Assembly: GCA_944385895.1 (NCBI GenBank)
Contig: CALWYZ010000018.1
Coordinates: forward strand, 1 to 39,498
DNA from: an uncultured Clostridia bacterium
GTDB lineage: Bacteria > Bacillota > Clostridia > Oscillospirales > QAKW01
Length of the DNA stretch: 39,498 nt
Reading direction: 5' to 3'
Shown one piece after another: positions 4,769 through 38,398 of the stretch; the first letter of the stretch is position 1; every line of letters starts with the position of its first letter. The notes beneath the pieces were generated by a model, which saw only the letters and a program-made list of their open reading frames with translations, had not been told where the DNA came from and made no database searches. The position numbers and the translations under genes were made by a program.

Positions 4769-4807
4769 AACGGTGCTGTAAATCCTTTTGATCTTTACAG
4801 CACCGTT
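4769..4807. terminator. Bidirectional intrinsic terminator between kdpE and tnpV
   Basis: A perfect 14-bp stem (4769-4782 with 4794-4807) and an 11-base loop. An A-run precedes it, which reads as a T-run on the minus strand, and a shorter T-rich stretch follows it. It lies between the convergent kdpE (+) and tnpV (-) and overlaps the tnpV stop codon, so it probably ends both transcripts. Confidence 0.8.
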
Positions 4808-5192
4808 AATCTTTTATGAAAAAAATCAATTCATTATTTATGACTTCCTTTGCTCTGCTGCGGATGTTATTCATTTGAGCAACCCATTTCATTTGATTAT
4901 CCGCTTTGAGTTTCTCGGTAACACCCTCATGCTCCGCTATCTGTTTTACCAAGCGAAAAAACATCTCCTCAGCCTGTTTGTCAATATCTGAGAGGTAGCC
5001 GTTCAGTTTACCGCTTGTCAGCAGATTGAGATAAAAGACCTTACGATTTTGCTTGATATACTGCAAATGTCGCTGTCCCCATAAACCGACAGGCTGTTGT
5101 TCTCCTTCGGGCAGTTTTAAACACGGTAGATAGTAGTCACCTTGAAGTTCGAACCAAAGACCGTTCTTTTCGTCATAAATGTACTTTTCCAT
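4806..5192 (-). CDS. tnpV: TnpV family transposon-encoded protein (copy 1)
   Basis: A 128-residue soluble protein beginning MEKYIYDEKNGLWFELQGDY, recognisable as the TnpV family known from Tn4451-like and related Clostridial mobile elements. Visible family features are the PCLKLPE and LWGQRHLQY segments, SGKLNGYLSDIDKQAEEMF and the LKADNQMKWVAQMNNIR stretch. The biochemical function is not established. The start at 5192 is chosen because GGAGG lies 8 bases upstream; a GTG at 5198 is too close to it. The upstream small gene ends at 5195, so the two are probably cotranscribed. A second, similar copy lies at 28995-29372 on the opposite strand. Confidence 0.85.
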   Translation of the reverse strand: MEKYIYDEKNGLWFELQGDYYLPCLKLPEGEQQPVGLWGQRHLQYIKQNRKVFYLNLLTSGKLNGYLSDIDKQAEEMFFRLVKQIAEHEGVTEKLKADNQMKWVAQMNNIRSRAKEVINNELIFFIKD

Positions 5193-5194
5193 AA

Positions 5195-5380
5195 TCACGC
5201 CTCCTTGTAAATTACTTTGAATTTCTTTTGTTTTGCACCAATGATTTTCAATAGAACTTCATCCACCGCATCGGTGTACTTGCCGTCAGCAATAATCTTG
5301 TTCCGCATTTCGTTCAGGCAGTTCACAATCACCCGCCGTTCAAAATCATCAAGCACTATGTAATACTTCTTATCTCGCAT
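5195..5380 (-). CDS. Small hypothetical protein upstream of tnpV
   Basis: A 61-residue charged, soluble protein (MRDKKYYIVLDDFERRVIVN at the start, KFKVIYKEA at the end) with no membrane segment or cysteine motif. GGAGG lies 7 bases upstream of the ATG, which supports translation. It ends 2 bases before the tnpV start, consistent with a two-gene transcript. Similar short proteins are, to my knowledge, common companions of TnpV in Clostridial mobile elements. No function can be assigned. Confidence 0.72.
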   Translation of the reverse strand: MRDKKYYIVLDDFERRVIVNCLNEMRNKIIADGKYTDAVDEVLLKIIGAKQKKFKVIYKEA

Positions 5381-5558: not shown

Positions 5559-5907
5559 TGGTGGAGGCGAGGGGAATTGAACCCCTGTCCGAAAACTATC
5601 CGGCATTGCTTTCTACGGATGTAGCTTTATATTTAAATTCCCTACAAACGGCGTCATAAAGCAGACTTCGTTTTTTGGTAGCTTCATATTACAAATAACC
5701 ATTCAAAGCTTTATGGTATTCGTTCACCACTAAATGTTACACCCTCTTGCGCTCGTGGTCCTTCGCATTTGGATGACGCTGCAATTAAGCAGCGTAAGCT
5801 AATTTATTATTGTTAGCGTTTAATTTTAAGTTACACATTTTTAAGAGGTTGTGTGCCTCTATCCGCTTACAATACCATCCGGTCCCCGTCGAAACCATTG
5901 CGCCCCC
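5559..5907 (-). ncRNA. ssrA: tmRNA (transfer-messenger RNA), ssrA
   Basis: Transfer-messenger RNA of about 349 nt on the minus strand. The 5' end GGGGGCGCAATGG (5907 down) pairs with the 3' end CGCCTCC before ACCA (5559 side) to form a 7-bp acceptor stem with one G·U. The 3' T-arm GGACAGGGGTTCAATTCCCC is typical, and CCA is encoded. The tag frame reads GCT AAC AAT AAT AAA TTA GCT TAC GCT GCT TAA (about 5826-5794), giving the tag AANNNKLAYAA once the charged alanine is counted. It ends in the usual small residues recognised by ClpXP-type proteases. tmRNA rescues stalled ribosomes with SmpB, encoded about 1 kb upstream. Its 3' end is a common integrase target, and accessory DNA adjoins it here. 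Confidence 0.96.
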
Positions 5908-24255: not shown

Positions 24256-26634
24256 ATGAAATTTAAAAAGGCATTATCTTTAATACTGGCAGTTTTGATG
24301 ACACTTTCAATGCTCTCTGCATTTTCCGTCGCAGAAGAAAGTGATGACATTTCTGCCGACTCATCTGCCCAAGACAGTACTGACAGTACAGATGCCAATA
24401 CCGGCGAAAGCACTACTGATACTTCTGTAAGTACTACAACAAGTACAGGCGAGGAGCAGAAAAACGAGTTTGGTGATATTATTGCCAGCAACATGACAGG
24501 CGATGGTACAACCGGAAATGTTGCGGATCTTGCACAGTTTACTCTTGCATCCGAAAATGAAAATCTTGCATTTTATATCAACGATATAAACGGATTTTTC
24601 GCACTCTATAATAAAAAGGATGGCTCTATTTGGTATTCCAATCCGCTTGACTGGGAAAAGGATACTGTTGCACAGGCTGCCAACAAAGAGCAGCTTCAGT
24701 CTCAGCTTGTAGTTACTTATCTTAATTCCAGCTATGATATAATCACGGTTGCATCAATGCAGGCGCATATAGTATCAGAGCATAAAGATAATCAGCAAAT
24801 ACTCACATATGTTTTCAGCGGAGCTACAAGAAATTTTTCCATTCCGGTAAAGTATGAGCTTATGGAGGATTATCTTGATGTTCAAATTATTATAGAAGAT
24901 ATCGAAGAAAACTCTGACGCAAGGATCACCCAGATAACATTGCTTCCATTCCTCGGTTGCGGCGGGCTTGCCGACAGCGGATATGCGCTTATTCCGGACG
25001 GCAGTGGTTCGCTTATGACATTTAATAAGACATGCAAAAACTTGTCACAGTATACAGGTTATATTTATAACCGTGATATTACTGCGTCATCAAATAATGT
25101 TTCTTATGTTGACCTCAATGAGACAATCAGTATGCCTGTATATGGAATAAGCAAAAATGGTGCCGGCTATCTTTCGGTTATTACAGAGGGTGCCGGAACG
25201 GGCGCTATAAAGTGTAATGTAAGTAAAATGTTTAACTCGTATAATAGCGTTTCCTCGCACTTTATTATTCGCGATACTCAGACAAGAGTAAACGCGACAG
25301 GAACAACCGGAGCCGGTGTATACTACGCTGACAATACCTGTGGAAATATATCTATGAGGGTATATCCGTTAAATAAGGAAAACTCAGATTATGTGGGAAT
25401 GGCTCAACGTTACAGAAAGTACCTTATTGATGAGCAAGGACTATCACCGTTGGATTCCACCAGCACATATGCAAATTCCCTTAACATGAATCTTTTCTGT
25501 GCTGTTAAGTCACCTATGCATTTTCTTGGAATTCCGTACACAGGAGTCAAGAAACTGACATCATTCAGTGATGTTAAAGATATAATAGACGAAGTTAAGG
25601 CAAAGGGAATAGATAGTCTTATTATAACTTTGTCAGGCTGGAGCTCGGGAGGACTTGAATCAGCTATTGATACCAAGTTCAGCCCTGAGTCAAAAATAGG
25701 CGGAATGTCGGGTGCAAAGGATTTGATCGCTTATGCTCAAGAGCAGGGTGTGTATCTTATGTTTGACAATGATGTACAGTCGTTTTATTCAGGCTCATCA
25801 CAGGTCAAAAAATTTAAACATACTGCTTATTCACTGTCCGGTACACCTGTTACTGTTTATCCTTTTTCCAAATCTCTTAACAGATCGGTTATAAGCGATA
25901 AATTTTATCATTTGATTCATCCAAATTACATGGTGCAATTTGCAAATGAGTTTGTTGACAACGCCATGAAGCTTAATATACACAATTTTTCATTTAACTC
26001 GGCAGGTACAGATCCATATGCTGCATATAATGATGATTCTCTTTTGACAAGAGATAAATCAGTTGAGCTTATGAAAGAGTTATTTAAAAATGTTGCTGAT
26101 AAAACGGATGGTATCGTGAGCACGAAGGTAGGTAATTCGTTTGTTTTTGGCAGTGTAGACAACTTAGTGGAAACTCCTGTTTATTCAAGTGATCTAATCA
26201 TGGCCCAGACAAGCGTTCCGTTCTATCAGATAGTGCTTCGCGGATATGTGAACATGTCTGCAGAAACCATGAATCTCTCGTCAGAGGTTACAGAGCTTGA
26301 GCTTAAGTGTGCTGAGTCCGGACTCAGTCTGTATTATCAGCTTATGGATTCCGATTCAACTGAGTTCCAGGATACATCCTTCAGTGACTATTATGCATGC
26401 AGCTATAATGACTACTTTGATATCATGACAGATACATATCAGAGAATGAAAAAAGTTTATGACGCTGTAGGCGTAAGCAGCATTGAAGATCATGAAATTT
26501 TCAGCGATACGGTCAGAATAACGACATTCTCAAACGGTGCCAAAGTTTATGTTAATTACGGCCAGGAGGATGTAACAGTAAACGGCGTTGCAGTTGCCGC
26601 CAGATCGTACACTGCAGTGGGAGGTGCTAACTAA
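24256..26634 (+). CDS. Secreted DUF5696-like protein, possible glycan-active enzyme
   Basis: 792 residues. A signal peptide (about 1-26, ending AFSVA) and an S/T/D-rich linker (about 27-65) are followed by a beta-rich region (about 80-350) containing FYINDINGFFALYNKKDGSIWYSNP. A part that looks like a TIM-barrel (about 385-690) follows, with KGIDSLIITLSGWSSGG, AQEQGVYLMFDND and later VEL/MELFKN-type strands. I associate this layout with DUF5696 proteins found beside LplABC-type transporters. Catalytic acids cannot be assigned with confidence. The stop overlaps the next permease start (TAATG). It is probably extracellular and may process or bind the transported glycan; that is inference. Confidence 0.72.
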   Translation: MKFKKALSLILAVLMTLSMLSAFSVAEESDDISADSSAQDSTDSTDANTGESTTDTSVSTTTSTGEEQKNEFGDIIASNMTGDGTTGNVADLAQFTLASENENLAFYINDINGFFALYNKKDGSIWYSNPLDWEKDTVAQAANKEQLQSQLVVTYLNSSYDIITVASMQAHIVSEHKDNQQILTYVFSGATRNFSIPVKYELMEDYLDVQIIIEDIEENSDARITQITLLPFLGCGGLADSGYALIPDGSGSLMTFNKTCKNLSQYTGYIYNRDITASSNNVSYVDLNETISMPVYGISKNGAGYLSVITEGAGTGAIKCNVSKMFNSYNSVSSHFIIRDTQTRVNATGTTGAGVYYADNTCGNISMRVYPLNKENSDYVGMAQRYRKYLIDEQGLSPLDSTSTYANSLNMNLFCAVKSPMHFLGIPYTGVKKLTSFSDVKDIIDEVKAKGIDSLIITLSGWSSGGLESAIDTKFSPESKIGGMSGAKDLIAYAQEQGVYLMFDNDVQSFYSGSSQVKKFKHTAYSLSGTPVTVYPFSKSLNRSVISDKFYHLIHPNYMVQFANEFVDNAMKLNIHNFSFNSAGTDPYAAYNDDSLLTRDKSVELMKELFKNVADKTDGIVSTKVGNSFVFGSVDNLVETPVYSSDLIMAQTSVPFYQIVLRGYVNMSAETMNLSSEVTELELKCAESGLSLYYQLMDSDSTEFQDTSFSDYYACSYNDYFDIMTDTYQRMKKVYDAVGVSSIEDHEIFSDTVRITTFSNGAKVYVNYGQEDVTVNGVAVAARSYTAVGGAN

Positions 26635-28750: not shown

Positions 28751-28784
28751 AATTAATAACGAGGAATTGCTGGAGGTATATCAA

Positions 28785-28825: not shown

Positions 28826-28867
28826 AGTCTGGAACAAAATAGGCTCCAGACTCCGCATGGTGCGGAT
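28826..28867. repeat. Tandem small hairpins at the core/accessory junction
   Basis: An 8-bp stem AGTCTGGA/TCCAGACT is followed directly by a CCGCATGGTGCGG hairpin. No long T-run follows. They lie in the 180-base stretch between the nine-codon remnant and tnpV copy 2 and may mark an element end. Confidence 0.4.
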
Positions 28868-28994: not shown

Positions 28995-29372
28995 ATGGAA
29001 AAGTACAAATATGACGAAAGCAACGGACTGTGGTATGAACTGGAGGGTGATTATTATTTGCCGCGTCTAAAACTTCCGGAGGCAGAACAGGTACATATCG
29101 GTATTTGGGGACAGCGGCACTTGAATTATCTGCGAGAAAATAAGCGGGTATTGCTCTCCAACTTGCAAATCAGTGGAAAACTGAACATTTATCTCGCCGA
29201 CATCGACAAGCAGGCAGAAGAAATGTTTTCCCGGCTTGTAAGTCAGATGGCAGAGCGGGAGGGCGTGACCGAGCGACTCAAAGCAGATAATCAAATGGAA
29301 TGGGTTGGGCGGATGAATGACATTCGTGGACGAGCCACAGAAATTGTAAACAGTGATTTGATTTACAAATAA
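28995..29372 (+). CDS. tnpV: TnpV family transposon-encoded protein (copy 2)
   Basis: A 125-residue protein beginning MEKYKYDESNGLWYELEGDY, clearly homologous to the protein at 4806-5192 over its whole length (shared IWGQRHLNYL, SGKLNIYLADIDKQAEEMF and LKADNQMEWVGRMNDIR type segments). The two differ at many positions, so they are diverged rather than recent copies. AGGAGGTCAAGATTTT precedes the ATG. Unlike copy 1 it has no small gene before it. It points away from the chromosomal core only in the sense that the two copies lie on opposite strands at opposite borders. Confidence 0.85.
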   Translation: MEKYKYDESNGLWYELEGDYYLPRLKLPEAEQVHIGIWGQRHLNYLRENKRVLLSNLQISGKLNIYLADIDKQAEEMFSRLVSQMAEREGVTERLKADNQMEWVGRMNDIRGRATEIVNSDLIYK

Positions 29373-29576: not shown

Positions 29577-30392
29577 TTAATCATCCAAATGGTCGATAGC
29601 GTACTGAGCTTCCTCAGCGGTAAATTGGCCACCGTATTCAGAAACAAGCTGATCATAAATTGCACTCTTGGACATACTCATCATGCTTTGATATGTTTTA
29701 GCTGATTCTAATGCGTTTTTCTTATAATCAGCATCTAAATTGTCTATAGCATATTGAGCTGCATCATCTTCGAACTGACCACCATATTCGGACGTCAACT
29801 GATCGAAGATTGCTTTTTTAGACATATGCATCATTTCAGAATATGTTTCTGCCTGTTTTAACGCATTTTGGTATTCGATAGAAGGCTTTTTGCCTTTTGA
29901 AATTACAACTTTAATCGTTGCGCCTTGTTTAACGGTTTCGTTAGCCTTTTTATTTTGGCTGATTACAGAACCCGAAGCAACGGTATCTGAGTAATCTTCG
30001 CTAAATTTAACGGTCACTTTATTTGTTGCAGCCCAGTTTTCAATATCAGCCTTATTCATTGCGCTGAAATCAATAACAGTGATTTTATTGCTGTCGGTTT
30101 TGTTATCAGTTGTATCATTATTGGTTTCATCGCCACTTTGAACAACAGAACTGCCGTTATCGGTGTTAGTAGAAGATTCATTACCACCGTTTACACTGCC
30201 GATGATGCCAATAGCTACAACCGCAATAATTACCCAAAACCACCATTTTTTATAAATCGGTTTTTTAGCCTTTACCGAAGCAACGGGCATAACTGGTGCT
30301 TGCTCTACTGCAGGTGTTTCTGCTTGTGCAGGCGCACCGCAGTTAGGGCAAAATTTTCCTTCAAATTGAGTTCCACATTGATTGCAATTCAT
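29577..30392 (-). CDS. Zinc-ribbon, PASTA and Ltp-repeat membrane protein
   Basis: 271 residues. The N-terminal zinc ribbon MNCNQCGTQFEGKFCPNCGA (Cys 3, 6, 15, 18) is followed by a Pro/Val linker, one membrane helix (about 49-66), an N/D/T-rich stretch (70-103), a PASTA-like domain (104-167, with SGSVISQNKKANETVKQG) and two copies of an Ltp-type helical repeat (174-221 and 224-270, each ending AQYAIDxLD). The predicted topology is zinc ribbon inside, PASTA and Ltp repeats outside. Ltp repeats occur in cell-surface lipoproteins, including a phage superinfection-exclusion protein of Streptococcus phage TP-J34. It is the last gene of the nine-gene operon, with GGAGG 9 bases before the ATG. Confidence 0.85.
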   Translation of the reverse strand: MNCNQCGTQFEGKFCPNCGAPAQAETPAVEQAPVMPVASVKAKKPIYKKWWFWVIIAVVAIGIIGSVNGGNESSTNTDNGSSVVQSGDETNNDTTDNKTDSNKITVIDFSAMNKADIENWAATNKVTVKFSEDYSDTVASGSVISQNKKANETVKQGATIKVVISKGKKPSIEYQNALKQAETYSEMMHMSKKAIFDQLTSEYGGQFEDDAAQYAIDNLDADYKKNALESAKTYQSMMSMSKSAIYDQLVSEYGGQFTAEEAQYAIDHLDD

Positions 30393-30416
30393 ATATTTAA
30401 TCCTCCAATTTTATAA

Positions 30417-30776
30417 TTATGCATTCCACTGATTGCCGCAGTTTTGGCACACACAAACTTTTCTTTGTTTGTTAACAACTTTTTGTTTTTTGTGGCCGAA
30501 AATTGCAAAAATCAAAGCCGGTAATGTTAGGAAAAGCCACTTAAACGGTATCCACCACCAACCCACACAAATCCACCATAGGCAACCATGATGCTGATTT
30601 TTAAGTTTAACCTCATTAATTACCTGAATACTAACATTTGTACTTCCGCACTTTCTGCATGTAACAACATTTTTAGAACTAATATTGTTTGCAGTTGGAG
30701 CGACTTGGCCTGCAGGAGTTCCACAGTTTGTGCAAAACTTACCCTCGAACTCTGAACCACATACATTACATTTCAT
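30417..30776 (-). CDS. Zinc-ribbon membrane protein with Trp-rich segment
   Basis: 119 residues with three cysteine motifs: the N-terminal ribbon MKCNVCGSEFEGKFCTNCGT (Cys 3, 6, 15, 18), CRKCG (40-44) and, after a hydrophobic Trp-rich segment (about 64-93), CVCQNCGNQW at the end. The last two could form one ribbon across the membrane hairpin. The start at 30776 follows GAGGAAAAAGAT; an ATG at 30863 lies inside the upstream gene. The N-terminal ribbon is nearly the same as in the 29577 protein. No known function. Confidence 0.78.
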   Translation of the reverse strand: MKCNVCGSEFEGKFCTNCGTPAGQVAPTANNISSKNVVTCRKCGSTNVSIQVINEVKLKNQHHGCLWWICVGWWWIPFKWLFLTLPALIFAIFGHKKQKVVNKQRKVCVCQNCGNQWNA

Positions 30777-30795
30777 ATCTTTTTCCTCCTCTATT

Positions 30796-31197
30796 TTATA
30801 GCGGCGAACCGCAATATTCACAAATTGATGATTTTGTACCGGTAATCTTATTAGGTGCGCCACAGTTTGGGCAGTTGACTACTTCATTATCAGTAAATGT
30901 CATCAAAGAATAACTGGCTACAACACCGCTCATTCCGTTTTGTGCTTGAATAATATAATCTTTATTTATATCAATATTTACAGTTAGCTTATTGCTTTTT
31001 ACGCCCATTGAACGAGCAGCCTTAAAAACCACAGTATGAGAACCCGGAGGTAATTCTATTTCAGTTTCTTCTCCCGGTCGCAACGTTGCAACAACGTTTT
31101 TATCAATCTTCACATTATAGGCATTTGCATTTCCCAATCCCATAGTTAAAGCCTTAAAGAACATATTTTCATTTTTAAGCACCTTTAAAACGACCAA
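30796..31197 (-). CDS. PEGA-like domain protein with C-terminal zinc ribbon
   Basis: 133 residues, soluble. The N-terminal part (about 1-95) looks like a small beta-sandwich with ATLRPGEETEIELPPGSHTVVFKA, similar to PEGA-type domains. The C-terminus is a zinc ribbon with Cys 109, 112, 126, 129 (VNCPNCGA, then CEYCGSPL). The start is TTG at 31197, chosen because AGGAG lies 7-8 bases upstream and no nearer ATG has a site. The final ribbon closely matches those of the next two upstream proteins. Confidence 0.75.
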   Translation of the reverse strand: MVVLKVLKNENMFFKALTMGLGNANAYNVKIDKNVVATLRPGEETEIELPPGSHTVVFKAARSMGVKSNKLTVNIDINKDYIIQAQNGMSGVVASYSLMTFTDNEVVNCPNCGAPNKITGTKSSICEYCGSPL

Positions 31198-31231
31198 TCA
31201 AATTCTCCTCTCATTAAATATTCTGTTTGTT

Positions 31232-31876
31232 TTACAGTGGTGAACCGCAATACTCACATTCGTTCGCAGTGCCTGGCACAACTGTATTTGTTGCACCACA
31301 ATTTTTGCATTTTACACTTGTTGATTGGGTACTTGATGGCGAAGCACTTTGATTTATATTGATGTTAACTGAAGCTGCTTTTTGCGGCATTATCAGCTCT
31401 CTGCGGTTTAAATCCACATACGCATTCATAAAATATCCGTCATCAAGCATTGACTGTAAATCCTTTGCCGCTTGTTCAAAAGAAGTAGGATAAGCGGCAG
31501 CAATATTATCGATTAATGTATCATTGCTGCTGTTGATAATGGCAACATATCTGTTGTACTTTGTACCTTTCTTTATGTACGAATGGGCCTTATACAATGC
31601 AAAAGCACCACCGCCGCCGAAGATCATAAGCATTACAATAACGCCACCTACAACGCTTGATCCATCTTCGGTTTCGAGTTCGCCTGTGATTCCCATAATC
31701 AAATACATTACAGCAAAGCCTATTAATATCCATGCTAAAATTTTTAAAGACCTTCCGTTTTTGATATAGTTAAATTTTTCGTCAGTCATCTTTTTAACTA
31801 ACATCCAAATACCAATGGGGAAAAACAGAAAGAACATTAATGCAATAATTCCCCATGAAAAAGATTTTTTCTGCAT
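31232..31876 (-). CDS. Membrane protein with helical domain and C-terminal zinc ribbon
   Basis: 214 residues: membrane helices at about 7-27, 44-64 and 76-97, a cytoplasmic helical domain (about 104-165, DNIAAAYPTSFEQAAKDLQSM, then GYFMNAYVDLNRRELIMP), an S/T/Q linker and a C-terminal zinc ribbon (Cys 190, 193, 207, 210). The helical domain matches one in the 31890 protein, so the two are paralogues. The start at 31876 is preferred over a GTG at 31885 because AGGAGG lies 9 bases upstream. Function unknown. Confidence 0.78.
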   Translation of the reverse strand: MQKKSFSWGIIALMFFLFFPIGIWMLVKKMTDEKFNYIKNGRSLKILAWILIGFAVMYLIMGITGELETEDGSSVVGGVIVMLMIFGGGGAFALYKAHSYIKKGTKYNRYVAIINSSNDTLIDNIAAAYPTSFEQAAKDLQSMLDDGYFMNAYVDLNRRELIMPQKAASVNININQSASPSSTQSTSVKCKNCGATNTVVPGTANECEYCGSPL

Positions 31877-31889
31877 TTTCTTCACCCTC

Positions 31890-32468
31890 CTATTCTGAAA
31901 TCTGCGATCCGCAGAATTCGCATTCGCCTACCGTTCCCGAGACAATCTTATTTGTTGCACCGCAACCCTTGCATTGAACGGTGGTATATTTTACCGTTTG
32001 AGTTGTTGCATTAGGAGCAGGTGTAGCGACGGTTGAAACTTGTTGTTGCGGCATTGTTGGTACAACTAACTTATTGTGCTGCCCATCAAGATAGCAGTTA
32101 GGGAAAAAGCCAAATGCTATCATGTAGCTGATGTTTTTTATCGCTATTGCAACAGTAACGCCGGTGGCAGAAGCCAATAAATCAATTGATTTTTCCGGAT
32201 CAGCTGCAAGTCGAGCTGAATAATCGTAAAATGTTCTGATTAATTTAAATTTTTGATTTCCCTTAATAATTAGCCAAACACCAACGGCAGCAATTGCCAA
32301 AAAGAATAATACCAATGTTACATCAAGAGCTTCTTTAAATCCGGATGTTGCACACCCAACAAAAGCAATAAATCCGTTAAAAACAGCTATTATCCAACCA
32401 AATACTCTTTGAATTGTGCCTTTAACTTTTACCTTGTTAATTGCAGAATCAACACTGTTTGACGCCAT
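31890..32468 (-). CDS. Paralogous membrane protein with C-terminal zinc ribbon
   Basis: 192 residues. Two membrane helices (about 20-41 and 50-68), a helical domain (about 75-137, SIDLLASATGVTVAIAIKNI, then FGFFPNCYLDGQHNKLVVP) and a C-terminal ribbon with Cys 166, 169, 183, 186 (VQCKGCGATNK, CEFCGSQ). Same plan as the 31232 protein with one helix fewer. GGAGGTATATAATT precedes the ATG; the upstream gene stops 2 bases before it. No known function. Confidence 0.78.
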   Translation of the reverse strand: MASNSVDSAINKVKVKGTIQRVFGWIIAVFNGFIAFVGCATSGFKEALDVTLVLFFLAIAAVGVWLIIKGNQKFKLIRTFYDYSARLAADPEKSIDLLASATGVTVAIAIKNISYMIAFGFFPNCYLDGQHNKLVVPTMPQQQVSTVATPAPNATTQTVKYTTVQCKGCGATNKIVSGTVGECEFCGSQISE

Positions 32469-32470
32469 AA

Positions 32471-33169
32471 TTATATACCTCCGATTTTCAATCTGCTCAC
32501 TTCAGCGTTTCTCTGCTTAATAAGGCACATTGTTTTTTCGCAAATTTCAAGAATTCTCTCGTTATTTCTTTCTTTAAGATTCAACTGTTCCAACAAAGTA
32601 TTAACGCTCTCATCTATTAGATTATCGGTATCAACGCAAACGCTCTGATCACAACTTTTTACTGCATCATCTATTTTTTTAAGCTCGCCATGAATGGTTT
32701 TTTTGCAATCGATAGAGTTTAAACTCTCTGTTTTATATTCCAGTGCTTTAAAAAAGCGGAAAGCGTTATCAACGGCATTAGCTTTATCAGAAACTTTCTT
32801 GCCGAAGAAATATACTAAGACTGACGAAATTAAAAATACTCCGGTTAGGCAAACAAATATAATTTTATATGTTGCAATTGCATTTCTGTAATAAAAAGCA
32901 AACAACATCGATAATGCAATAACTAAAACCTGATAACCGAAAAGTATTGTATACCCCCCTGCAGTCATCGTAAGTTTCTTTTTGCCAGAAACGGTGTTAT
33001 AGAATAGAGTTCCCAATAAAGTAATCACTTCCGAAACTATGACACCAAACAAAGTGGTTTTATCCATCAGCAATTTTTCGTATGGAAGTAAATAATATAT
33101 TGCAACCGTTAAGGCGATGAGCAGCAAAAAACCAAATGTAGAAATTAAATTCTTTTTGAGTTTCCTCAT
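32471..33169 (-). CDS. 4-TM membrane protein with C-terminal helical domain
   Basis: 232 residues. Four membrane helices fill roughly residues 9-120 (LISTFGFLLLIALTVAIYYLL, TLFGVIVSEVITLLGTLFY, YTILFGYQVLVIALSMLFAF, IIFVCLTGVFLISSVLVYFF). A charged, probably coiled-coil cytoplasmic domain follows to the end. No cysteine ribbon. The start at 33169 follows AAAGGTGATAACA; a GTG at 33178 is inside that site. It has the same topology as the 34501 protein, and the two flank the SPFH gene. Function unknown. Confidence 0.75.
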   Translation of the reverse strand: MRKLKKNLISTFGFLLLIALTVAIYYLLPYEKLLMDKTTLFGVIVSEVITLLGTLFYNTVSGKKKLTMTAGGYTILFGYQVLVIALSMLFAFYYRNAIATYKIIFVCLTGVFLISSVLVYFFGKKVSDKANAVDNAFRFFKALEYKTESLNSIDCKKTIHGELKKIDDAVKSCDQSVCVDTDNLIDESVNTLLEQLNLKERNNERILEICEKTMCLIKQRNAEVSRLKIGGI

Positions 33170-33185
33170 TGTTATCACCTTTACC

Positions 33186-34487
33186 TTACTCTATTTTTGT
33201 ACCACACTCAGGGCAGAATTTGGGAGTACCGGTTATCGGAGAATTACAAGAGGGACAAGTTTTTATTAAAGACTTACCGCATTCAGGACAGAATCTTGTA
33301 TTCTTACCGGGGAGAGCAGCACCACAATGAGGGCAAGGCTGAGGAGCCTCATATCCGCAGGATGTGCATGTTACAGCACCTGCTGGCAAATCCGCACCGC
33401 ATTTGGGGCAGGGATTATATTTGTCGCCGCACTCGGGACAGAACTTCATGGTGTTTTTATACTCAAAGCCGCAGTTACTGCATTTTACAGTATCTTTTGC
33501 ATTGTTCTCTTCCTTCTTGTTGGTATCACAACCACAGTCGGAGCAGAATCGTTTGCTCTTAGGCATTATAGCACCGCACAAAGGGCAAGATTTTGTATCT
33601 TCGGCATTTGTATCAAGCGTTTTTGCAATTCCACCAAATTGACCGCCAACTGCGCCTCCCATTGTAACGCCCATTCCGAGACCTAACCCAGCACCCATAA
33701 GATCTCCAGAGGTTCCGGGATTCTTTGCGGCGCCTTCCAACGTATCGAAAGAGCGCTCTTGCTGATAGTTATATCCGATAATATTCATCTCGGCCTTCTT
33801 GGCAAGAGCATCTTTGAGTTTTTTAACAGCTGTGTCATCTTCGGGAACACTGATGTCATTAACATAAAAGTTAACAAGTTTTATGCCGTATTCTTCAAGT
33901 ACGGGCTGCATCTTTTCTTGCAGATATGTGGAGAGTTCTTCAATATAAGCATTGATCTCCATAATGCTTATTTGTTTATGTACCAAATAAGAGGAAATCG
34001 CATCTTTTACCTTTGTAAGATATAAACCGCGGAAATATTTAAGAATATTGGTTTTATCAAATACAGAAAGAGTTCCAACCAATTTAACGAGGAACTGTTT
34101 GGAGTTTTCAATTCTAATTCCAAACTGTCCGAAAGCTCTGACAGGGATAAATACAGAATATTTAGGGTCCTGCAATTGAATTGGTGAAGCTGTGCCCCAC
34201 TTGATATCAAGTGAGTTTACCTTGTTTATGTACCAAACCTCCGCAGTAAACGGTGAACGACCACCGAAAGGGAGGTTGATTATCTTATTTAAAATCGGAA
34301 TATTGGCGGTTTCTAAAGTATGACGACCACTCTGGAATACATCCAGTGCTTTACCACCCTTAAAAAGTATCGCTTCTTGCGACTCATTAACGATCAGTTG
34401 TGTCCAAGTGCCTAATTCTTCACTCGGGTATTTCCAAGCGAATACATCCGGACTACCGTTATACTTAACTACTTCTACAATTGCCAT
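33186..34487 (-). CDS. SPFH-domain protein with five zinc-ribbon units (YdjI-like)
   Basis: 433 residues. An SPFH/band-7-like domain (about 20-235; LIVNESQEAILFKGGKALDVFQSGRH, PVRAFGQFGIRI, KLVNFYVNDISVPEDD) is followed by a helical stretch, a Gly-rich linker (about 255-290) and a tail with ten CxxC motifs, that is five zinc-ribbon units (CPLCG/CSDCG, CSNCG/CPECG, CPKCG/CTSCG, CPHCG/CPECG, CPSCN/CPECG). SPFH proteins form membrane-associated rings or scaffolds. Bacillus YdjI, linked to PspA membrane-stress response, is the closest relative I recognise; the long ribbon array here is larger than I would expect. GAGGAGGAAACAAAA precedes the ATG. It is probably the core of this operon. Confidence 0.87.
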   Translation of the reverse strand: MAIVEVVKYNGSPDVFAWKYPSEELGTWTQLIVNESQEAILFKGGKALDVFQSGRHTLETANIPILNKIINLPFGGRSPFTAEVWYINKVNSLDIKWGTASPIQLQDPKYSVFIPVRAFGQFGIRIENSKQFLVKLVGTLSVFDKTNILKYFRGLYLTKVKDAISSYLVHKQISIMEINAYIEELSTYLQEKMQPVLEEYGIKLVNFYVNDISVPEDDTAVKKLKDALAKKAEMNIIGYNYQQERSFDTLEGAAKNPGTSGDLMGAGLGLGMGVTMGGAVGGQFGGIAKTLDTNAEDTKSCPLCGAIMPKSKRFCSDCGCDTNKKEENNAKDTVKCSNCGFEYKNTMKFCPECGDKYNPCPKCGADLPAGAVTCTSCGYEAPQPCPHCGAALPGKNTRFCPECGKSLIKTCPSCNSPITGTPKFCPECGTKIE

Positions 34488-34500
34488 TTTTGTTTCCTCC

Positions 34501-35223
34501 TCAAATGCTACTGCTCATCAATCTGATTTGCATATTTCTATCTTTTACTACTTTTTTGATATCGTTGATAATGGCTTCCATGCTTGTGATATCATCAGAT
34601 TTTATTAAAACCAAATTATCAACTTCCGCAGAAAGCATCTCAGCCATCGAGCGAAGCCGTGTGTCTATATCAGAGACATCGACCGTTAGACCGAAATCTG
34701 AAAATCTTAACTCATCAAGAAGGCTATCTATAAGCGGCAAAGCCTTCTTCTTTGATTCGAGCTGCATATCTATAAGTTTTGTTTTAATTTTTTCAAATTC
34801 ATATATGAGAATTTGCATTTCACATATTTTACCGTTTACTTGATTGGTTTGTTTTATTACCAGATTCTTGGTTGCAAACATTAAGACGGTAATTATTGCG
34901 TATAAGGCCATACACATCAAATGAATACTTATGAATATATTAACAGCAGTGTTAAATATGAACCCGAACAAAATGTTGATAGCAACCACAACAGCAACAT
35001 AAATTGCAGAAAAAGCCACCATCGAAATTTCCAACGGAAATGCCGAACTTCTTTTTCGATTAGTCACTACTGTTATAACTGCGGCTAAGCCAACCGCAAA
35101 CAGCACCATTGCAAAGCCGATCCAAAATACTGTGTCCCTATCGGTAGTCAAAATTATCGATAGAGCGATATATAACGCTACAATGATCGAATATACCGAT
35201 AGAATTATCCCGTGCTTTCTCAT
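34501..35223 (-). CDS. 4-TM membrane protein with coiled-coil C-terminus
   Basis: 240 residues. Four membrane helices (about 6-26, 33-54, 67-93, 97-118) are followed by a long helical cytoplasmic domain (about 125-240; KICEMQILIYEFEKIKTKL, then VDNLVLIKSDDITSMEAIIND). The start at 35223 follows GGGAAAGAGGGATAAA; a longer frame to 35325 would overlap the ribbon-helix-helix gene and has no site. It lies 1 base after the upstream stop and 13 bases before the SPFH gene. Similar plan to the 32471 protein, suggesting duplication. Function unknown. Confidence 0.75.
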   Translation of the reverse strand: MRKHGIILSVYSIIVALYIALSIILTTDRDTVFWIGFAMVLFAVGLAAVITVVTNRKRSSAFPLEISMVAFSAIYVAVVVAINILFGFIFNTAVNIFISIHLMCMALYAIITVLMFATKNLVIKQTNQVNGKICEMQILIYEFEKIKTKLIDMQLESKKKALPLIDSLLDELRFSDFGLTVDVSDIDTRLRSMAEMLSAEVDNLVLIKSDDITSMEAIINDIKKVVKDRNMQIRLMSSSI

Positions 35224-35224
35224 T

Positions 35225-35428
35225 TTATCCCTCTTTCCCATCTGTGTCAGTTTCAAGATTATCAATTGCGAATTCCAGACATAACATAATAATTTCATTT
35301 CTATTTCGTCCAGTGTTCTCTGCAATGCGATCCAAATCTTTTATTAACTCGTTCGGTAATCTTGCGGACACAACAGAGGTATCACCCTTATAGCGTTTTG
35401 ATGGTATAAATAATTTCTTACCAGCCAA
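35225..35428 (-). CDS. Ribbon-helix-helix (CopG/Arc-type) DNA-binding protein
   Basis: 67 residues. The beta strand and two helices TSVVSARLPNELIKDLDRIAENTGRNRNEIIMLCLEFAIDNL fit the ribbon-helix-helix fold used by small dimeric repressors. The start is TTG at 35428, chosen because GGAGGTG lies 7 bases upstream; an upstream in-frame TTG at 35446 has no site. It is the first gene of the nine-gene operon and directly downstream of its promoter, so autoregulation is likely. Some such proteins are antitoxins, but the next gene does not look like a toxin. Confidence 0.78.
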   Translation of the reverse strand: MAGKKLFIPSKRYKGDTSVVSARLPNELIKDLDRIAENTGRNRNEIIMLCLEFAIDNLETDTDGKEG

Positions 35429-35472
35429 GATTATACACCTCCACAATATTGCTGTTATTATCCAACGCTATT

Positions 35473-35501
35473 ATTGTAATACAAATGTTTACAGATGTCA
35501 A
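35473..35501 (-). promoter_or_regulatory. σA promoter of the SPFH/zinc-ribbon operon
   Basis: On the minus strand a consensus TTGACA (35501-35496), 17-base spacer and TACAAT (35478-35473), about 45 bases upstream of the TTG start. Confidence 0.8.
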
Positions 35502-35515
35502 CACCATTTTCGACA

Positions 35516-35615
35516 TATCGCAAACTTTTCTTGTATAATTTTCGCTCTTTATTGCATATTATATCGCATTAATTCCAAAATTGCGATATATCCTACACGA
35601 TTTATCGCAATTTTG
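35516..35615. promoter_or_regulatory. Repeated TATCGCAA operator-like sites in the divergent region
   Basis: Four copies of a TATCGCA(A) half-site: 35516-35524, 35562-35568, 35576-35588 (inverted) and 35603-35615. The last two form a perfect 13-base inverted repeat, CAAAATTGCGATA and TATCGCAATTTTG, 14 bases apart, just upstream of the XRE gene. The first lies 15 bases upstream of the operon -35. This is what a shared operator for the divergent XRE gene and the operon would look like. Confidence 0.65.
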
Positions 35616-35647
35616 AGTAAAATTTTATGTAATAAGGAGGTGCGCCG

Positions 35648-35890
35648 GTGAATACAAAAGAAGCAGTTGCCAAAAGAATACTACAATTGTGCGAGGAAAA
35701 GCATATTGCAATTAATGCTTTAGCCAACATCTCCGGTGTAGCGCCCTCTACAATTTATAGTATGCTAAATGAAAAGAGTCAAAATCCGGGAGTCGTTTCT
35801 ATAAAGAAAATATGTGACGGTCTCGAAATAACTGTTCGTGAATTCTTTGATTGCGAATTTTTCGACAGCAGAGAACAAGAAATATGTTAA
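35648..35890 (+). CDS. XRE-family HTH transcriptional regulator
   Basis: 80 residues, almost entirely a Cro/C1-type helix-turn-helix (about 5-68): VAKRILQLCEEKHIAINALANISGVAPSTIYSML, then ISIKK-like PGVVSIKKICDGLEITVREFF. Small XRE proteins of this type are common in Clostridial mobile elements. The start codon is GTG at 35648, preceded by AAGGAGGTGCGCCG. It is transcribed away from the SPFH operon and has its own terminator, and it is a natural candidate to bind the TATCGCAA sites between them. Confidence 0.85.
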   Translation: MNTKEAVAKRILQLCEEKHIAINALANISGVAPSTIYSMLNEKSQNPGVVSIKKICDGLEITVREFFDCEFFDSREQEIC

Positions 35891-35931
35891 AAAGCTTATG
35901 AACTCATTTGAATTCATAAGCTTTGTTTTTT
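35890..35931 (+). terminator. Intrinsic terminator of the XRE gene
   Basis: A 12-bp stem (35891-35902 with 35913-35924) is followed by GTTTTTT; an A-run precedes it. Confidence 0.82.
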
Positions 35932-36030
35932 AAATATCACTATAAGAAACACTTTTTTATTATGATAGTTACATCCGTAAACAATATTGTATCTATTTCA
36001 GGTGACATTTTCGTTATTTCAGATAATCAG

Positions 36031-37254
36031 TTAAACATGGTCAACTTCGTTTCTCACTTCTCTTGTCATCACGGTAGTGGAATTTTGCTGAGCCACTTTT
36101 TCTGAAATTGTTGTTTCCATAACCATATATTTAGGTATGTGATTCCTATTTGTATTTTGCATAATCCATTCTCCTGCGGAGGCGAAAAAGAAATCACCCT
36201 TTTTGTCGGCATAAACATATTGAACAACATCGTAATCGTCTTCGCCGAAGGTATAGTGGATTTTGCCCCAGTCATTGTTATGATCGGCACAGTATTCATA
36301 GGTGACTGAGTTATTGTCAGCGGATGTCAACCTCAGCTCTACAATATGGATGTACTCATCAATCGCAAGCTCAATCAGCATTTTCTCATATGCGCCGTTT
36401 ACAATTTGGAAAGCAGTATCCGGAGACGATAACATATGCTCGGCGGCGAGGTCTATGTAGGCTTTCCCTTTGCGGAGCAGCTTGACCGAATTGCCGTTTT
36501 CGTCTTTACTGAGTTCATAAATCCCGTAACATTCCGGGCAAAAGCCGAGATGATCGGCAACCATCATGCGTTCTCGGTAATCAAGTGCTTCGTAAGCGGT
36601 AAACAGTGCTTCTGCCTGCCACTGTTTGAAAAATAACCTTTCAGGATTGGAGGTAGTGTCAACCGTCACATCCTCCGCCGTGCTTTCACCGTCCTCGTCA
36701 GCGTATTTGCGGTAAAAATCGGTGTAGTGCGTGCTGTCAATTCCGGCACGGATGATCTCTTTGGTGTCTTTGACGCTTTTCCCGATTTCGGCGGCGATTA
36801 TGGTTATCGTTTCATCATCAAACTTATACTCATATTTTGCATACAGCGCCATTGCCTTTCTGAGCGTTCGGTATTCGTCCACACTTTGAACGGAATAACC
36901 TGTCCGCATGGTACTGATGTACTTGTCGATTTCATTTTTTACATAATGCTCTTTGAAAATAAGAAACGGCACTCCGGTGGAAATATCGTATTTTTGCAAC
37001 GCCTTGTAGATACCGAAAATATACGCCTGTTTCAAATCGGCGAAGTGCCCTTGCATTGCGGTTTCTTGCACCGTATCCATAATAATTGTGTTCAGCCTTG
37101 GCTCATAATAGTGGAAGAACCAACCGAGGTATTTTTCGTCCTTTTCAGCAAAGTAAAGAGCAATATACTCCTGAAAATCATCTTTTTTCGGCGGTGCCGG
37201 CTTCATACGGTATAAATACAAATCTTCTGTCCACTTTTCGTTTTTCACCGGCAC
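36031..37254 (-). CDS. Sigma-70-like factor of a mobile element, long C-terminal part
   Basis: 407 residues. About residues 30-130 resemble sigma region 2: GHFADLKQAYIFGIYKALQKYD, then TGVPFLIFKEHYVKNEIDKYI. A second helical region (about 135-260) could correspond to regions 3-4 (DDETITIIAAEIGKSVKDTKEII; YEALDYRERMMVADHLGFC). The C-terminal 140 residues, with GEDDYDVVQYVYADKKGDFFF, are not sigma-like and were not recognised. The ATG at 37254 lies after GGAAGGTGTGTGCCGGTGAAAA-type sequence on the minus strand (a GTG at 37245 is an alternative). It ends far from the XRE gene and follows the DUF6076-like gene by 10 bases, so those two are probably cotranscribed. Confidence 0.6.
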   Translation of the reverse strand: MPVKNEKWTEDLYLYRMKPAPPKKDDFQEYIALYFAEKDEKYLGWFFHYYEPRLNTIIMDTVQETAMQGHFADLKQAYIFGIYKALQKYDISTGVPFLIFKEHYVKNEIDKYISTMRTGYSVQSVDEYRTLRKAMALYAKYEYKFDDETITIIAAEIGKSVKDTKEIIRAGIDSTHYTDFYRKYADEDGESTAEDVTVDTTSNPERLFFKQWQAEALFTAYEALDYRERMMVADHLGFCPECYGIYELSKDENGNSVKLLRKGKAYIDLAAEHMLSSPDTAFQIVNGAYEKMLIELAIDEYIHIVELRLTSADNNSVTYEYCADHNNDWGKIHYTFGEDDYDVVQYVYADKKGDFFFASAGEWIMQNTNRNHIPKYMVMETTISEKVAQQNSTTVMTREVRNEVDHV

Positions 37255-37264
37255 ACACCTTCCT

Positions 37265-38398
37265 TCACTTCAAATTCCTGTCCACTTCGGCGTATAACGC
37301 TTCTCGACTCATATCTATTTTGTACTGCGTTTTTGCATATTGATCGTCCGCCAACGCTCGCAGCTTATGTTCCTTTGCAAGATGTTTCGCCGCTTCACCA
37401 AATGCTTTGGATATTGTACATCTGCCAACCTCTGTACGAATGGCACCGCAGCGGCGATTATACAGTGATACAATCGGATCGTTCTCCGCTTTTTCTTTTC
37501 TGTTCAGCACGGCGGCATATTTTCGGCAAGTAATCTTCTTGCCCCGGTACAACTCCGGAGCAATGCCGTAAGAACAGTATTTCTGCCGTCTTGCGCTTTG
37601 CATAAGAAAGTACTTTCCGCAAATTTCACACTTGCGGGGATAGTGCCCGTAGTGTAGCCCCTCAAAAAAGTCTGTCAGTATAAAGCTGTAATAGCTGTCG
37701 AAATTAAGCCTCTTTGCCACGGTTCCGGTTACGCTTTTTGCGTTCTTCTTTACCGATATGTATCTGCCGCTTTGCGTAAAGTGATGGTCTACGAATATTT
37801 CTAACGCCAATGGTAATAAATGCGCCTCGTCAAGTCGTTCAACCTCGTCAATGCGGTTGCAGAAATTTAATAGGTTCCCGTGTGCAAGTATCAAGTCATC
37901 GGCAAGAGAATCAAAGAATAACAATATCGATTTTATCTCTGCAATGTTGTTTTCAATCACAGAAAAATCCGTTACGTTTTTCATCCTGTCCGCCGTGCCT
38001 GCGGCAATATCATCTTGTGTCAATAAACTGAGCTTTGCCTTGTTGGCAAAGTATTCGCATATCTTCTTCCCGGTTTCTTCCGTGAAAAGCGTTGTTACTG
38101 TATTTTGGATTTCTTCAAAATTCAGCCCGTCAAACGGTCGCAGTTTTGGTAATGCTTTTAAGGCTTCAAGAGTATTTGCACCCGTTTTCACAAATTCCGT
38201 GATGCTCAAGTATCCGTTGCTAAGCTGTGTGAGAATATGATAATTCAAATCATCCCGAAATACTGCAATCCGCGCGGCAGTATCTTTTATGTAAAACTGA
38301 TTGAGTAGGTGCGTGGCAAACACTCCGGCGGGATAGCTTTTGCCGCCGAATATCACTCTGCCGTCACGGTAATCGGCAGTAAAAAACGCAGAAATCAT
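37265..38398 (-). CDS. DUF6076-like protein with Cys cluster
   Basis: 377 residues, mostly helical, cytoplasmic. A Cys motif KCEICGKYFLMQSARRQKYCS, then a further Cys in KKITCRKYA (about residues 255-295), suggests a structural metal site like CGNR/treble-clef modules. I associate this layout with DUF6076 proteins of Clostridial integrative elements; no activity is known. AAAGGAGCAAAAAA precedes the ATG. It lies upstream of the sigma-like gene on the same strand. Confidence 0.65.
   Translation of the reverse strand: MISAFFTADYRDGRVIFGGKSYPAGVFATHLLNQFYIKDTAARIAVFRDDLNYHILTQLSNGYLSITEFVKTGANTLEALKALPKLRPFDGLNFEEIQNTVTTLFTEETGKKICEYFANKAKLSLLTQDDIAAGTADRMKNVTDFSVIENNIAEIKSILLFFDSLADDLILAHGNLLNFCNRIDEVERLDEAHLLPLALEIFVDHHFTQSGRYISVKKNAKSVTGTVAKRLNFDSYYSFILTDFFEGLHYGHYPRKCEICGKYFLMQSARRQKYCSYGIAPELYRGKKITCRKYAAVLNRKEKAENDPIVSLYNRRCGAIRTEVGRCTISKAFGEAAKHLAKEHKLRALADDQYAKTQYKIDMSREALYAEVDRNLK

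What the first reader, a model, noticed from the sequence alone, without database searches (positions are those of the whole stretch)
29577..35428. Nine-gene SPFH/zinc-ribbon membrane operon in mobile DNA
Nine minus-strand genes with gaps of 1-34 bases encode a ribbon-helix-helix protein, two 4-TM coiled-coil proteins around an SPFH protein carrying five zinc-ribbon units, and five further zinc-ribbon proteins, four of them membrane-embedded. The nearest known idea is the PspA-linked YdjG/YdjH/YdjI membrane-stress module of Bacillus subtilis, but there is no PspA here, the set is larger, and it sits between mobile-element genes. A membrane-guarding or phage-exclusion role is possible; the Ltp repeats in the last gene point the same way. 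This is inference.
Basis: partly seen in the sequence, partly recalled or inferred. Interest (0 to 1): 0.8.

Follow-up and report, generated by a model that had tools for sequence, protein, structure and literature searches.

The report
Mobile zinc-ribbon membrane guard operon
A bacterium of the Clostridia carries, in DNA that two other species of its genus lack at that spot, a nine-gene set that is predicted to build a protein platform on the cell membrane and would likely help keep invading phage DNA out; its closest relatives stand next to TIR immune-type genes, not next to the PspA stress system it was first compared with.

Summary
The operon is real: nine minus-strand genes, gaps 1-34 nt, domains as described. 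It recurs as a unit: four of seven related loci keep genes 1-6 in order, two are shorter, one is contig-cut; genes 7-8 are swapped in near-identical copies. It lies in apparently acquired DNA: two same-genus genomes lack it at this site, and a same-order genome of another family shares the segment at 92-94%. The PspA-YdjGHI comparison fails: no PspA in the 99.8%-complete genome, PspA-linked SPFH proteins form another clade, and their partners are not homologous to the 4-TM proteins. The SPFH and both 4-TM proteins belong instead to a family of SPFH-4TM pairs accompanied by zinc-ribbon genes, often ribbon-TIR genes; the same genome carries one such TIR locus. A unique promoter/operator precedes gene 1 and recurs in distant relatives. 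Best reading: a mobile SPFH/4TM scaffold with ribbon-tagged clients, ending in a surface PASTA-Ltp protein that likely blocks phage DNA entry. Function is inferred; neighbours are not enriched in known defence genes.

The parts
35473..35501 (-). promoter with a TTGTA-repeat operator: TTGACA - 17 nt - TACAAT
   Evidence: only match in the 1.95-Mb genome with up to 3 mismatches, reversed-pattern control 0; 21-23/23 in 12 of 19 RHH-led rows; sigma-type hexamers 11 of 12
35225..35428 (-). gene 1, ribbon-helix-helix protein, TTG start, 67 aa; predicted autorepressor
   Evidence: RHH_1 3.7e-5, over cut-off; 75-99% aa identity in 6 related loci
34501..35223 (-). gene 2, TM4a, 240 aa: four predicted TM helices then a helical domain
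   Evidence: 67 homologues in 5.8 billion proteins; model pLDDT 73.7; same family as TM4b and the TIR-locus 4TM
33186..34487 (-). gene 3, SPFH protein with five C-terminal zinc ribbons, 433 aa
   Evidence: Band_7_1 2e-48; ten CxxC; 73-100% aa identity in 7 related loci
32471..33169 (-). gene 4, TM4b, 232 aa, paralogue of gene 2
   Evidence: hhalign to TM4a E 1.3e-13 and to TIR-locus 4TM E 1.3e-20
31890..32468 (-). gene 5, membrane protein with C-terminal zinc ribbon, 192 aa
   Evidence: paralogue of gene 6: its L013 homologue also matches gene 6 at 4e-23 (phmmer)
31232..31876 (-). gene 6, 214 aa: three predicted TM helices, a predicted winged-helix domain (about 101-168), C-terminal zinc ribbon
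30796..31197 (-). gene 7, soluble protein with C-terminal zinc ribbon, 133 aa; swappable position
   Evidence: no Pfam hit over cut-off; only 22-25% aa to the best counterparts in L013 and L014, 77% in L017
30417..30776 (-). gene 8, small membrane protein with four CxxC, 119 aa; swappable position
   Evidence: CxxC at 3, 15, 40, 110; 33-35% aa in L013 and L014, 78% in L017
29577..30392 (-). gene 9: N-terminal zinc ribbon, one TM helix, then PASTA and two Ltp repeats, predicted outside the cell, 271 aa
   Evidence: PASTA 4.8e-12, Lipoprotein_Ltp 9.8e-47; a PASTA-Ltp gene in 5 of 13 other window-type loci examined
35648..35890 (+). divergent HTH_26 regulator, 80 aa, possibly part of the unit
   Evidence: HTH_26 2.2e-9; same place in L013 and L014
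28861..28877 (+). left edge of the segment shared with L013
   Evidence: blastn similarity to L013 starts at 28858; the 17-mer occurs once in the genome; same-genus synteny stops at 28751-28754
28995..29372 (+). TnpV transposon-type gene, convergent with gene 9
   Evidence: PF14198 9.2e-45; TnpV homologues within about 3.5 kb of the related sets in L013, L017, L019 and L087, and a similar gene on C20

Best explanation
The nine genes are arranged as one operon led by a ribbon-helix-helix gene, in apparently acquired DNA, and they likely build an SPFH/4-TM membrane scaffold that would hold zinc-ribbon-tagged client proteins, the last of which is predicted to face outward and block incoming phage DNA. 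Shown: gene content and order, recurrence of the set, homology of both 4-TM proteins to the 4-TM partner in ribbon-TIR loci, absence of PspA, absence of the insert at this site in two same-genus genomes, swapped genes 7-8 between near-identical copies, and a promoter/operator unique in the genome and conserved in distant relatives. Inferred: the RHH protein represses its own promoter through the TTGTA repeats; SPFH subunits oligomerise on the inner face of the membrane, anchored by TM4a and TM4b; the five ribbons of the SPFH protein bind the ribbons of genes 5-9, so that the ribbon is a docking tag and clients can be exchanged; gene 9, anchored by its TM helix, presents PASTA (wall binding) and Ltp repeats (as in phage TP-J34 Ltp) outside and blocks phage DNA passage. 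The TIR-linked relatives would be the same platform with an intracellular NAD-attacking client.
For: Operon anatomy. Recurrence in 7 named genome loci, four of them with genes 1-6 in order. SPFH tree: 14-row window clade (support 96; 13 of 14 with a neighbouring 4TM, the other cut by a contig end) inside a 70-row clade (100) that also holds the TIR-linked loci. Of 79 sampled Band_7_1 loci, 39 fall in this SPFH branch: 4TM within 300 nt in 29 of 39, TIR nearby in 13 of 39, PspA nearby in 0 of 39; in the other 40: 4TM 2, TIR 0, PspA 9. In a second, partly overlapping set (39 of 55 branch loci that have a same-strand gene after the 4TM) a zinc-ribbon gene is first or second in 34 of 39, against 60 of 834 other ORFs. 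TM4a, TM4b and the TIR-locus 4TM are one family. Operator. Mobility: two same-genus genomes without the insert, shared segment in another family, and a window-type SPFH-4TM-ribbon set just after holin and integrase genes in L170, a contig of the viral collection; 5 of the 6 viral-collection loci have a 4TM gene, one a TIR gene. The repeat domain of TP-J34 Ltp is described as the exclusion unit of a protein that stops DNA injection (passages of PMC3952083).
Against: No functional data. PASTA-Ltp is found in only 5 of 13 other window-type loci examined, so the core does not need it. The core also sits in ordinary chromosomal places (L089, L092). PADLOC finds nothing convincing in the operon; 83 neighbour proteins match 63 PADLOC families, 82 control neighbours 81, so there is no sign of enrichment (each list shows only the first 25 families). 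No TIR gene in the stretches held for the 14-row window clade. No relative of gene 2 in viral contigs or plasmids. Seven of 19 RHH-led rows lack the operator. The ribbon-docking idea has no structural support here. TP-J34 Ltp is lipid-anchored, gene 9 is not.
Confidence: 0.42

Rival explanations
1. A PspA-free envelope-stress guard: the scaffold stabilises the membrane against antimicrobial peptides, bile or lantibiotics, and rides on mobile elements as a fitness cargo. The Ltp-PASTA protein would be a wall anchor, not an anti-phage part.
For: The SPFH domain is of the PF13421 type, as in PspA-linked loci, and YdjI works with membrane partners in the B. subtilis membrane-stress response (passages of PMC8581546). 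Core loci without Ltp exist, two of them between ordinary chromosomal genes. No defence-gene enrichment around it.
Against: No PspA in the genome; partners not homologous to those of PspA-linked loci; TIR genes in 13 of 39 sampled relatives; patchy presence, strong gene-2 matches in 3 of 394 genomes of the order and weak ones in 14 more.
Confidence: 0.3
2. A mobile-element self-service module, such as entry exclusion against a second copy of the element or a membrane platform for its own transfer.
For: TnpV and Cys_rich_VLP genes and a stretch like L017's actin-like partition gene around it; the TIR-linked relative L041 stands beside an integrase and a similar partition-type stretch.
Against: The same core sits in a phage-type contig (L170) and in two chromosomes of one genus where I noted no mobile gene in the stretches read. 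Conjugation genes were not searched for; the window's contig ends at 39498.
Confidence: 0.15
3. A loose set of accessory membrane genes that happen to be co-transcribed.
For: Genes 7-9 vary between loci.
Against: Genes 1-6 in order in four of seven related loci and SPFH 73-100% identical in the seven compared; 34 of 39 loci have a ribbon gene right after the pair; dedicated operator.
Confidence: 0.05

Closest known systems
TIR-linked SPFH-4TM loci of Clostridia (no published name found; 21 rows of the tree, plus L011 in the window's own genome)
   Same: SPFH protein with a homologous 4-TM partner gene beside it; ribbon-bearing genes in the operon; in some an RHH gene first, with the same operator in L121; some in mobile DNA
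   Different: The ribbon gene encodes a TIR protein, mostly with TPR; one 4-TM gene; SPFH has 0-11 CxxC motifs; in the operons listed none of the 21 shows a gene-5, gene-6 or gene-9 homologue
PspA-YdjG-YdjH-YdjI of Bacillus subtilis and its clostridial counterparts
   Same: PF13421 SPFH protein with C-terminal zinc ribbon(s) and membrane partners, one with zinc ribbons
   Different: No PspA; SPFH in another clade; partners of the clostridial counterparts not homologous
Ltp superinfection-exclusion lipoproteins of Streptococcus thermophilus phages
   Same: Ltp repeats (PF07553), predicted outside the cytoplasmic membrane
   Different: TM anchor with cytoplasmic zinc ribbon in place of a lipid; PASTA added; part of a nine-gene operon

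Membership tests
PspA-YdjGHI membrane-stress module | PspA/IM30 encoded with the SPFH gene | tested here: not met
   0 PF04012 matches in the 99.8%-complete genome
PspA-YdjGHI membrane-stress module | PF13421 SPFH protein | tested here: met
   2e-48
PspA-YdjGHI membrane-stress module | SPFH groups with PspA-linked SPFH proteins | tested here: not met
   tree of 101 rows: the 9 PspA-linked rows sit in a 13-row clade (99) apart from the 70-row clade (100) with the window (quick method, single support value)
PspA-YdjGHI membrane-stress module | membrane partners homologous to those of PspA-linked loci | tested here: not met
   hhalign probability: 4TM vs two-ribbon TM partner 1.0%, vs TPM partner 1.8%, gene 6 vs TPM partner 0.7%; gene 6 vs the TM partner aligns only over the ribbon. 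B. subtilis YdjG/YdjH themselves were not compared
TIR-linked SPFH-4TM loci | 4-TM partner of the same family adjacent to SPFH | tested here: met
   hhalign E 4.9e-16 and 1.3e-20
TIR-linked SPFH-4TM loci | zinc-ribbon genes in the operon | tested here: met
   genes 5-9; 34 of 39 branch loci
TIR-linked SPFH-4TM loci | TIR-domain protein | tested here: not met
   no TIR in the nine genes, in any window ORF of 50 aa or more, or in the stretches held for its clade
Ltp superinfection-exclusion proteins | Ltp repeats (PF07553) | tested here: met
   9.8e-47, two stretches
Ltp superinfection-exclusion proteins | lipoprotein anchor | tested here: not met
   read from the translation: N-terminal zinc ribbon and internal TM helix, no N-terminal signal with lipobox
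Ltp superinfection-exclusion proteins | blocks phage DNA injection | not testable with these tools
   needs phage assays
Known anti-phage systems (PADLOC 2023) | match to a defence model beyond a shared accessory domain | tested here: not met
   only PD-T4-6 models (best 1.4e-10) over gene 9 residues 48-190, which I take as the PASTA part of kinases, and two hits at 0.05
Integrative mobile element cargo | absent at the same site in close relatives | tested here: met
   G001 and G002, two of the three other same-genus genomes, keep synteny to 28751-28754 and then have other genes, different in each; G003 has no match to the flanking gene
Integrative mobile element cargo | both ends of the element and its integrase defined | tested here: inconclusive
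   left edge near 28858; the contig ends at 39498; no integrase among the ORFs I scanned, not all ORFs were scanned

The most novel reading that the evidence does not exclude
A previously unnamed class of bacterial immune platform: RHH-controlled SPFH-4TM membrane scaffolds that dock interchangeable zinc-ribbon-tagged effectors, with an intracellular TIR arm in one branch and an extracellular Ltp-PASTA exclusion arm in the branch seen here, the ribbon being the plug that lets mobile elements swap arms.
Probability: 0.3. Interest if true: 0.88.

Novelty: new variant of a known kind. Interest (0 to 1): 0.64.

Why it matters
YdjI-type SPFH proteins are read as PspA helpers. In the Clostridia sampled here, a branch of 39 loci has PspA nearby in none, its own 4-TM partner within 300 nt in 29, and a TIR gene in 13. 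If the ribbon is a docking tag, one could predict clients of the platform from sequence alone and test directly whether membrane microdomain scaffolds take part in phage immunity.

Tried and rejected

Sampling: of the places listed (its list is cut) I took 80 by hand, 60 almost in series from E 3e-50 to 1e-31 and 20 from the classes above and below, so it is not a random draw; L164 had no SPFH hit and was dropped. Loci L041-L053 were chosen by a gene-2 profile match, L055 and L056 by an SPFH match in the genus and family; they are used in the tree and, not in the 79-locus counts. L043 had no SPFH gene and was dropped. In the tree, the 4TM label of the first eight rows (window, L013, L014, L016-L019, L040) was set by me; their lack of TIR was checked afterwards.

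Paper searches for SPFH (or stomatin, flotillin) with TIR, zinc ribbon, antiphage, mobile element or gene neighbourhood gave no description of this system in the listings. Passages only were read of PMC8581546, PMC7159879, PMC3952083 and PMC10936438. One search was the search that found the Ltp paper.
Full report
Observation. The nine genes are present as described, with gaps of 1-34 nt. Pfam supports the RHH, SPFH, PASTA and Ltp assignments; genes 2, 4, 5, 6, 7 and 8 match no Pfam family over its cut-off. Every gene except the RHH gene and the two 4-TM genes carries CxxC pairs.

A unit. A gene-2 profile finds 7 loci in the named genome collection and 0 in viral contigs. L013, L014, L017 and L019 have genes 1-6 in the same order. 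L016 has no recognised gene 1 or gene 5, though DNA similarity runs through the gene-1 stretch (to 35510); L018 lacks genes 4 and 5, and its gene 2 is split; L015 is cut inside SPFH by its contig end and has no recognised RHH ORF. A more distant locus, L040, has RHH, TM4a, SPFH, a gene-6 homologue and a PASTA-Ltp gene. SPFH is 99-100% identical in L013 and L014 and 73-90% in the other five compared. In the window's order 3 of 394 genomes have a strong gene-2 match, in three families; 14 more have weak ones.

Swapped tail. Window 31230-36473 is 93.6% identical to L013 and 31230-35939 is 94.9% identical to L014; in both, similarity stops at the end of gene 6. The best counterparts of genes 7 and 8 there share only 22-35% aa, and the gene-9 stretch resumes at 91.8% (L013) and 78.4% (L014) nucleotide identity. 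L017, much more distant, does have genes 7 and 8 (77-78% aa) but its last ribbon gene has no PASTA or Ltp match. So ribbon genes move between tails.

Apparently acquired DNA. In G001 and G002 (same genus) synteny with the window runs to 28751-28754 and then other genes follow, different in each; G003 had no match to the flanking gene. L013 is the same contig as G369:C7 (equal length 61812 and matching place), of another family in the same order, and shares the window from 28858 on. TnpV homologues lie near the operon in the window, L013, L017 and L019. The window's contig ends in a stretch similar to L017's actin-like partition gene region. In L170, a contig of the viral collection, a window-type SPFH-4TM-ribbon-ribbon set (SPFH 70% identical) follows a holin and an integrase gene. 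Of the six viral-collection loci, five have a 4TM gene and one, L174, a TIR gene. The core is also in two chromosomes of one genus between ordinary genes (L089, L092), so mobility is not obligatory.

Not the PspA module. The genome has no PspA. I sampled 80 Band_7_1 loci in the class; 79 gave an SPFH gene. 39 belong to the window's branch (profile E under 1e-100): 4TM within 300 nt in 29, TIR in 13, PspA in 0. Of the 10 without a near 4TM, four are at contig ends (L090, L112, L130, L132), two have one 1.5-2.2 kb away (L096, L129), four have none found (L110, L139, L140, L142). The other 40: 4TM 2, TIR 0, PspA 9. The tree separates the PspA-linked rows from the 70-row clade (100) that holds the window clade (14 rows, 96) and a 43-row clade (100) with the 21 TIR-linked rows (quick method, single support value, some long branches flagged). 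Profile comparison puts TM4a, TM4b and the TIR-locus 4TM in one family and finds no relation to the partners in PspA loci, apart from the ribbon.

TIR relatives. In the same genome, contig C20 has a ribbon-TIR-TPR gene, an SPFH-ribbon gene and a 4-TM gene in a row, with a TnpV-like gene further on. TIR_2 is over its cut-off in the four TIR proteins tested. One of these four matched a PADLOC model, PDC-S66, 1.5e-10.

Ribbon tag. Among 55 branch loci (39 sampled ones, 14 chosen by gene-2, SPFH or 4TM matches, and L141 and L154), 39 have a same-strand gene of 90 aa or more after the 4TM; the first or second such gene has a ribbon in 34, against 60 of 834 other ORFs. In four of the other five (L050-L052, L131) a ribbon-TIR gene lies upstream of SPFH; L128 has neither. 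An RHH gene precedes SPFH in 10 of the 55. Docking through ribbons is my inference.

Regulation. A sigma-type promoter at 35501-35473 with 17-nt spacing has TTGTA repeats in its spacer. The site occurs once in the genome with up to 3 mismatches and scores 21-23 of 23 in 12 of 19 RHH-led rows, including L120, L121, L124, L125, L133 and L137 from the sister clade. One contig is counted twice (L013, L039), and the consensus was drawn from some of the same rows.

Parts with predicted structure. Gene 6: three TM helices, a winged-helix domain and a ribbon. Gene 9: a lysine-rich segment before one TM helix, so ribbon inside and PASTA-Ltp outside (read from sequence). PASTA-Ltp is found in 5 of 13 other window-type loci (L013, L014, L016, L019, L040; not in L017, L018, L087, L089, L091, L092, L106 and L170). 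All five have TM4a as well.

Reading. The most likely mechanism is a membrane scaffold with exchangeable ribbon clients, here ending in an outward Ltp-PASTA protein that would hinder phage DNA entry. The scaffold genes' kinship and their mobility rest on calls; assembly, docking and the phage step are inference. The negative defence-island test and the Ltp-free cores keep the stress-guard rival alive.

Noticed in passing
G000 contig C20, L011:371-4774: A second SPFH locus of the same genome: ribbon-TIR-TPR protein, SPFH with ribbons at both ends and a 4-TM protein, with a TnpV-like gene further on.
   Followed up: partly
window 4806-5198 and 5559-5907: Another stretch similar to the TnpV regions of L011, L013 and L042 lies beside the tmRNA gene; L042 also matches part of the tmRNA stretch next to its TnpV.
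   Followed up: no
L172:7862-11443: An SPFH gene with a 4TM-family gene and a ribbon gene sits between a phage portal gene and a major head gene in a viral-collection contig, like an inserted cargo.
   Followed up: partly
L174:9992-15037: SPFH, 4TM and TIR genes together in a viral-collection contig.
   Followed up: no
L017:8544-9784: Upstream of the RHH gene: a small FGHR-motif protein and an ion-channel protein (Ion_trans 1.2e-27); L019 has a similar FGHR-motif gene at the same place and a YhcG-type nuclease nearby.
   Followed up: partly
L018:611-1350: Gene 2 is split into two overlapping reading frames, and the operon is short.
   Followed up: no
P0061: A metagenome protein joins the N-terminal half of gene 2 to the PASTA-Ltp part of gene 9; either an assembly artefact or a deletion.
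   Followed up: no
window 36031-37254 and 37265-38398: Two minus-strand genes, one without any Pfam match and one DUF6076, recur together in L017 on the other side of the operon, which suggests a shared element backbone.
   Followed up: partly
window 24256-26634: A DUF5696 protein (4.7e-161) next to permease-type genes just left of the insertion.
   Followed up: no
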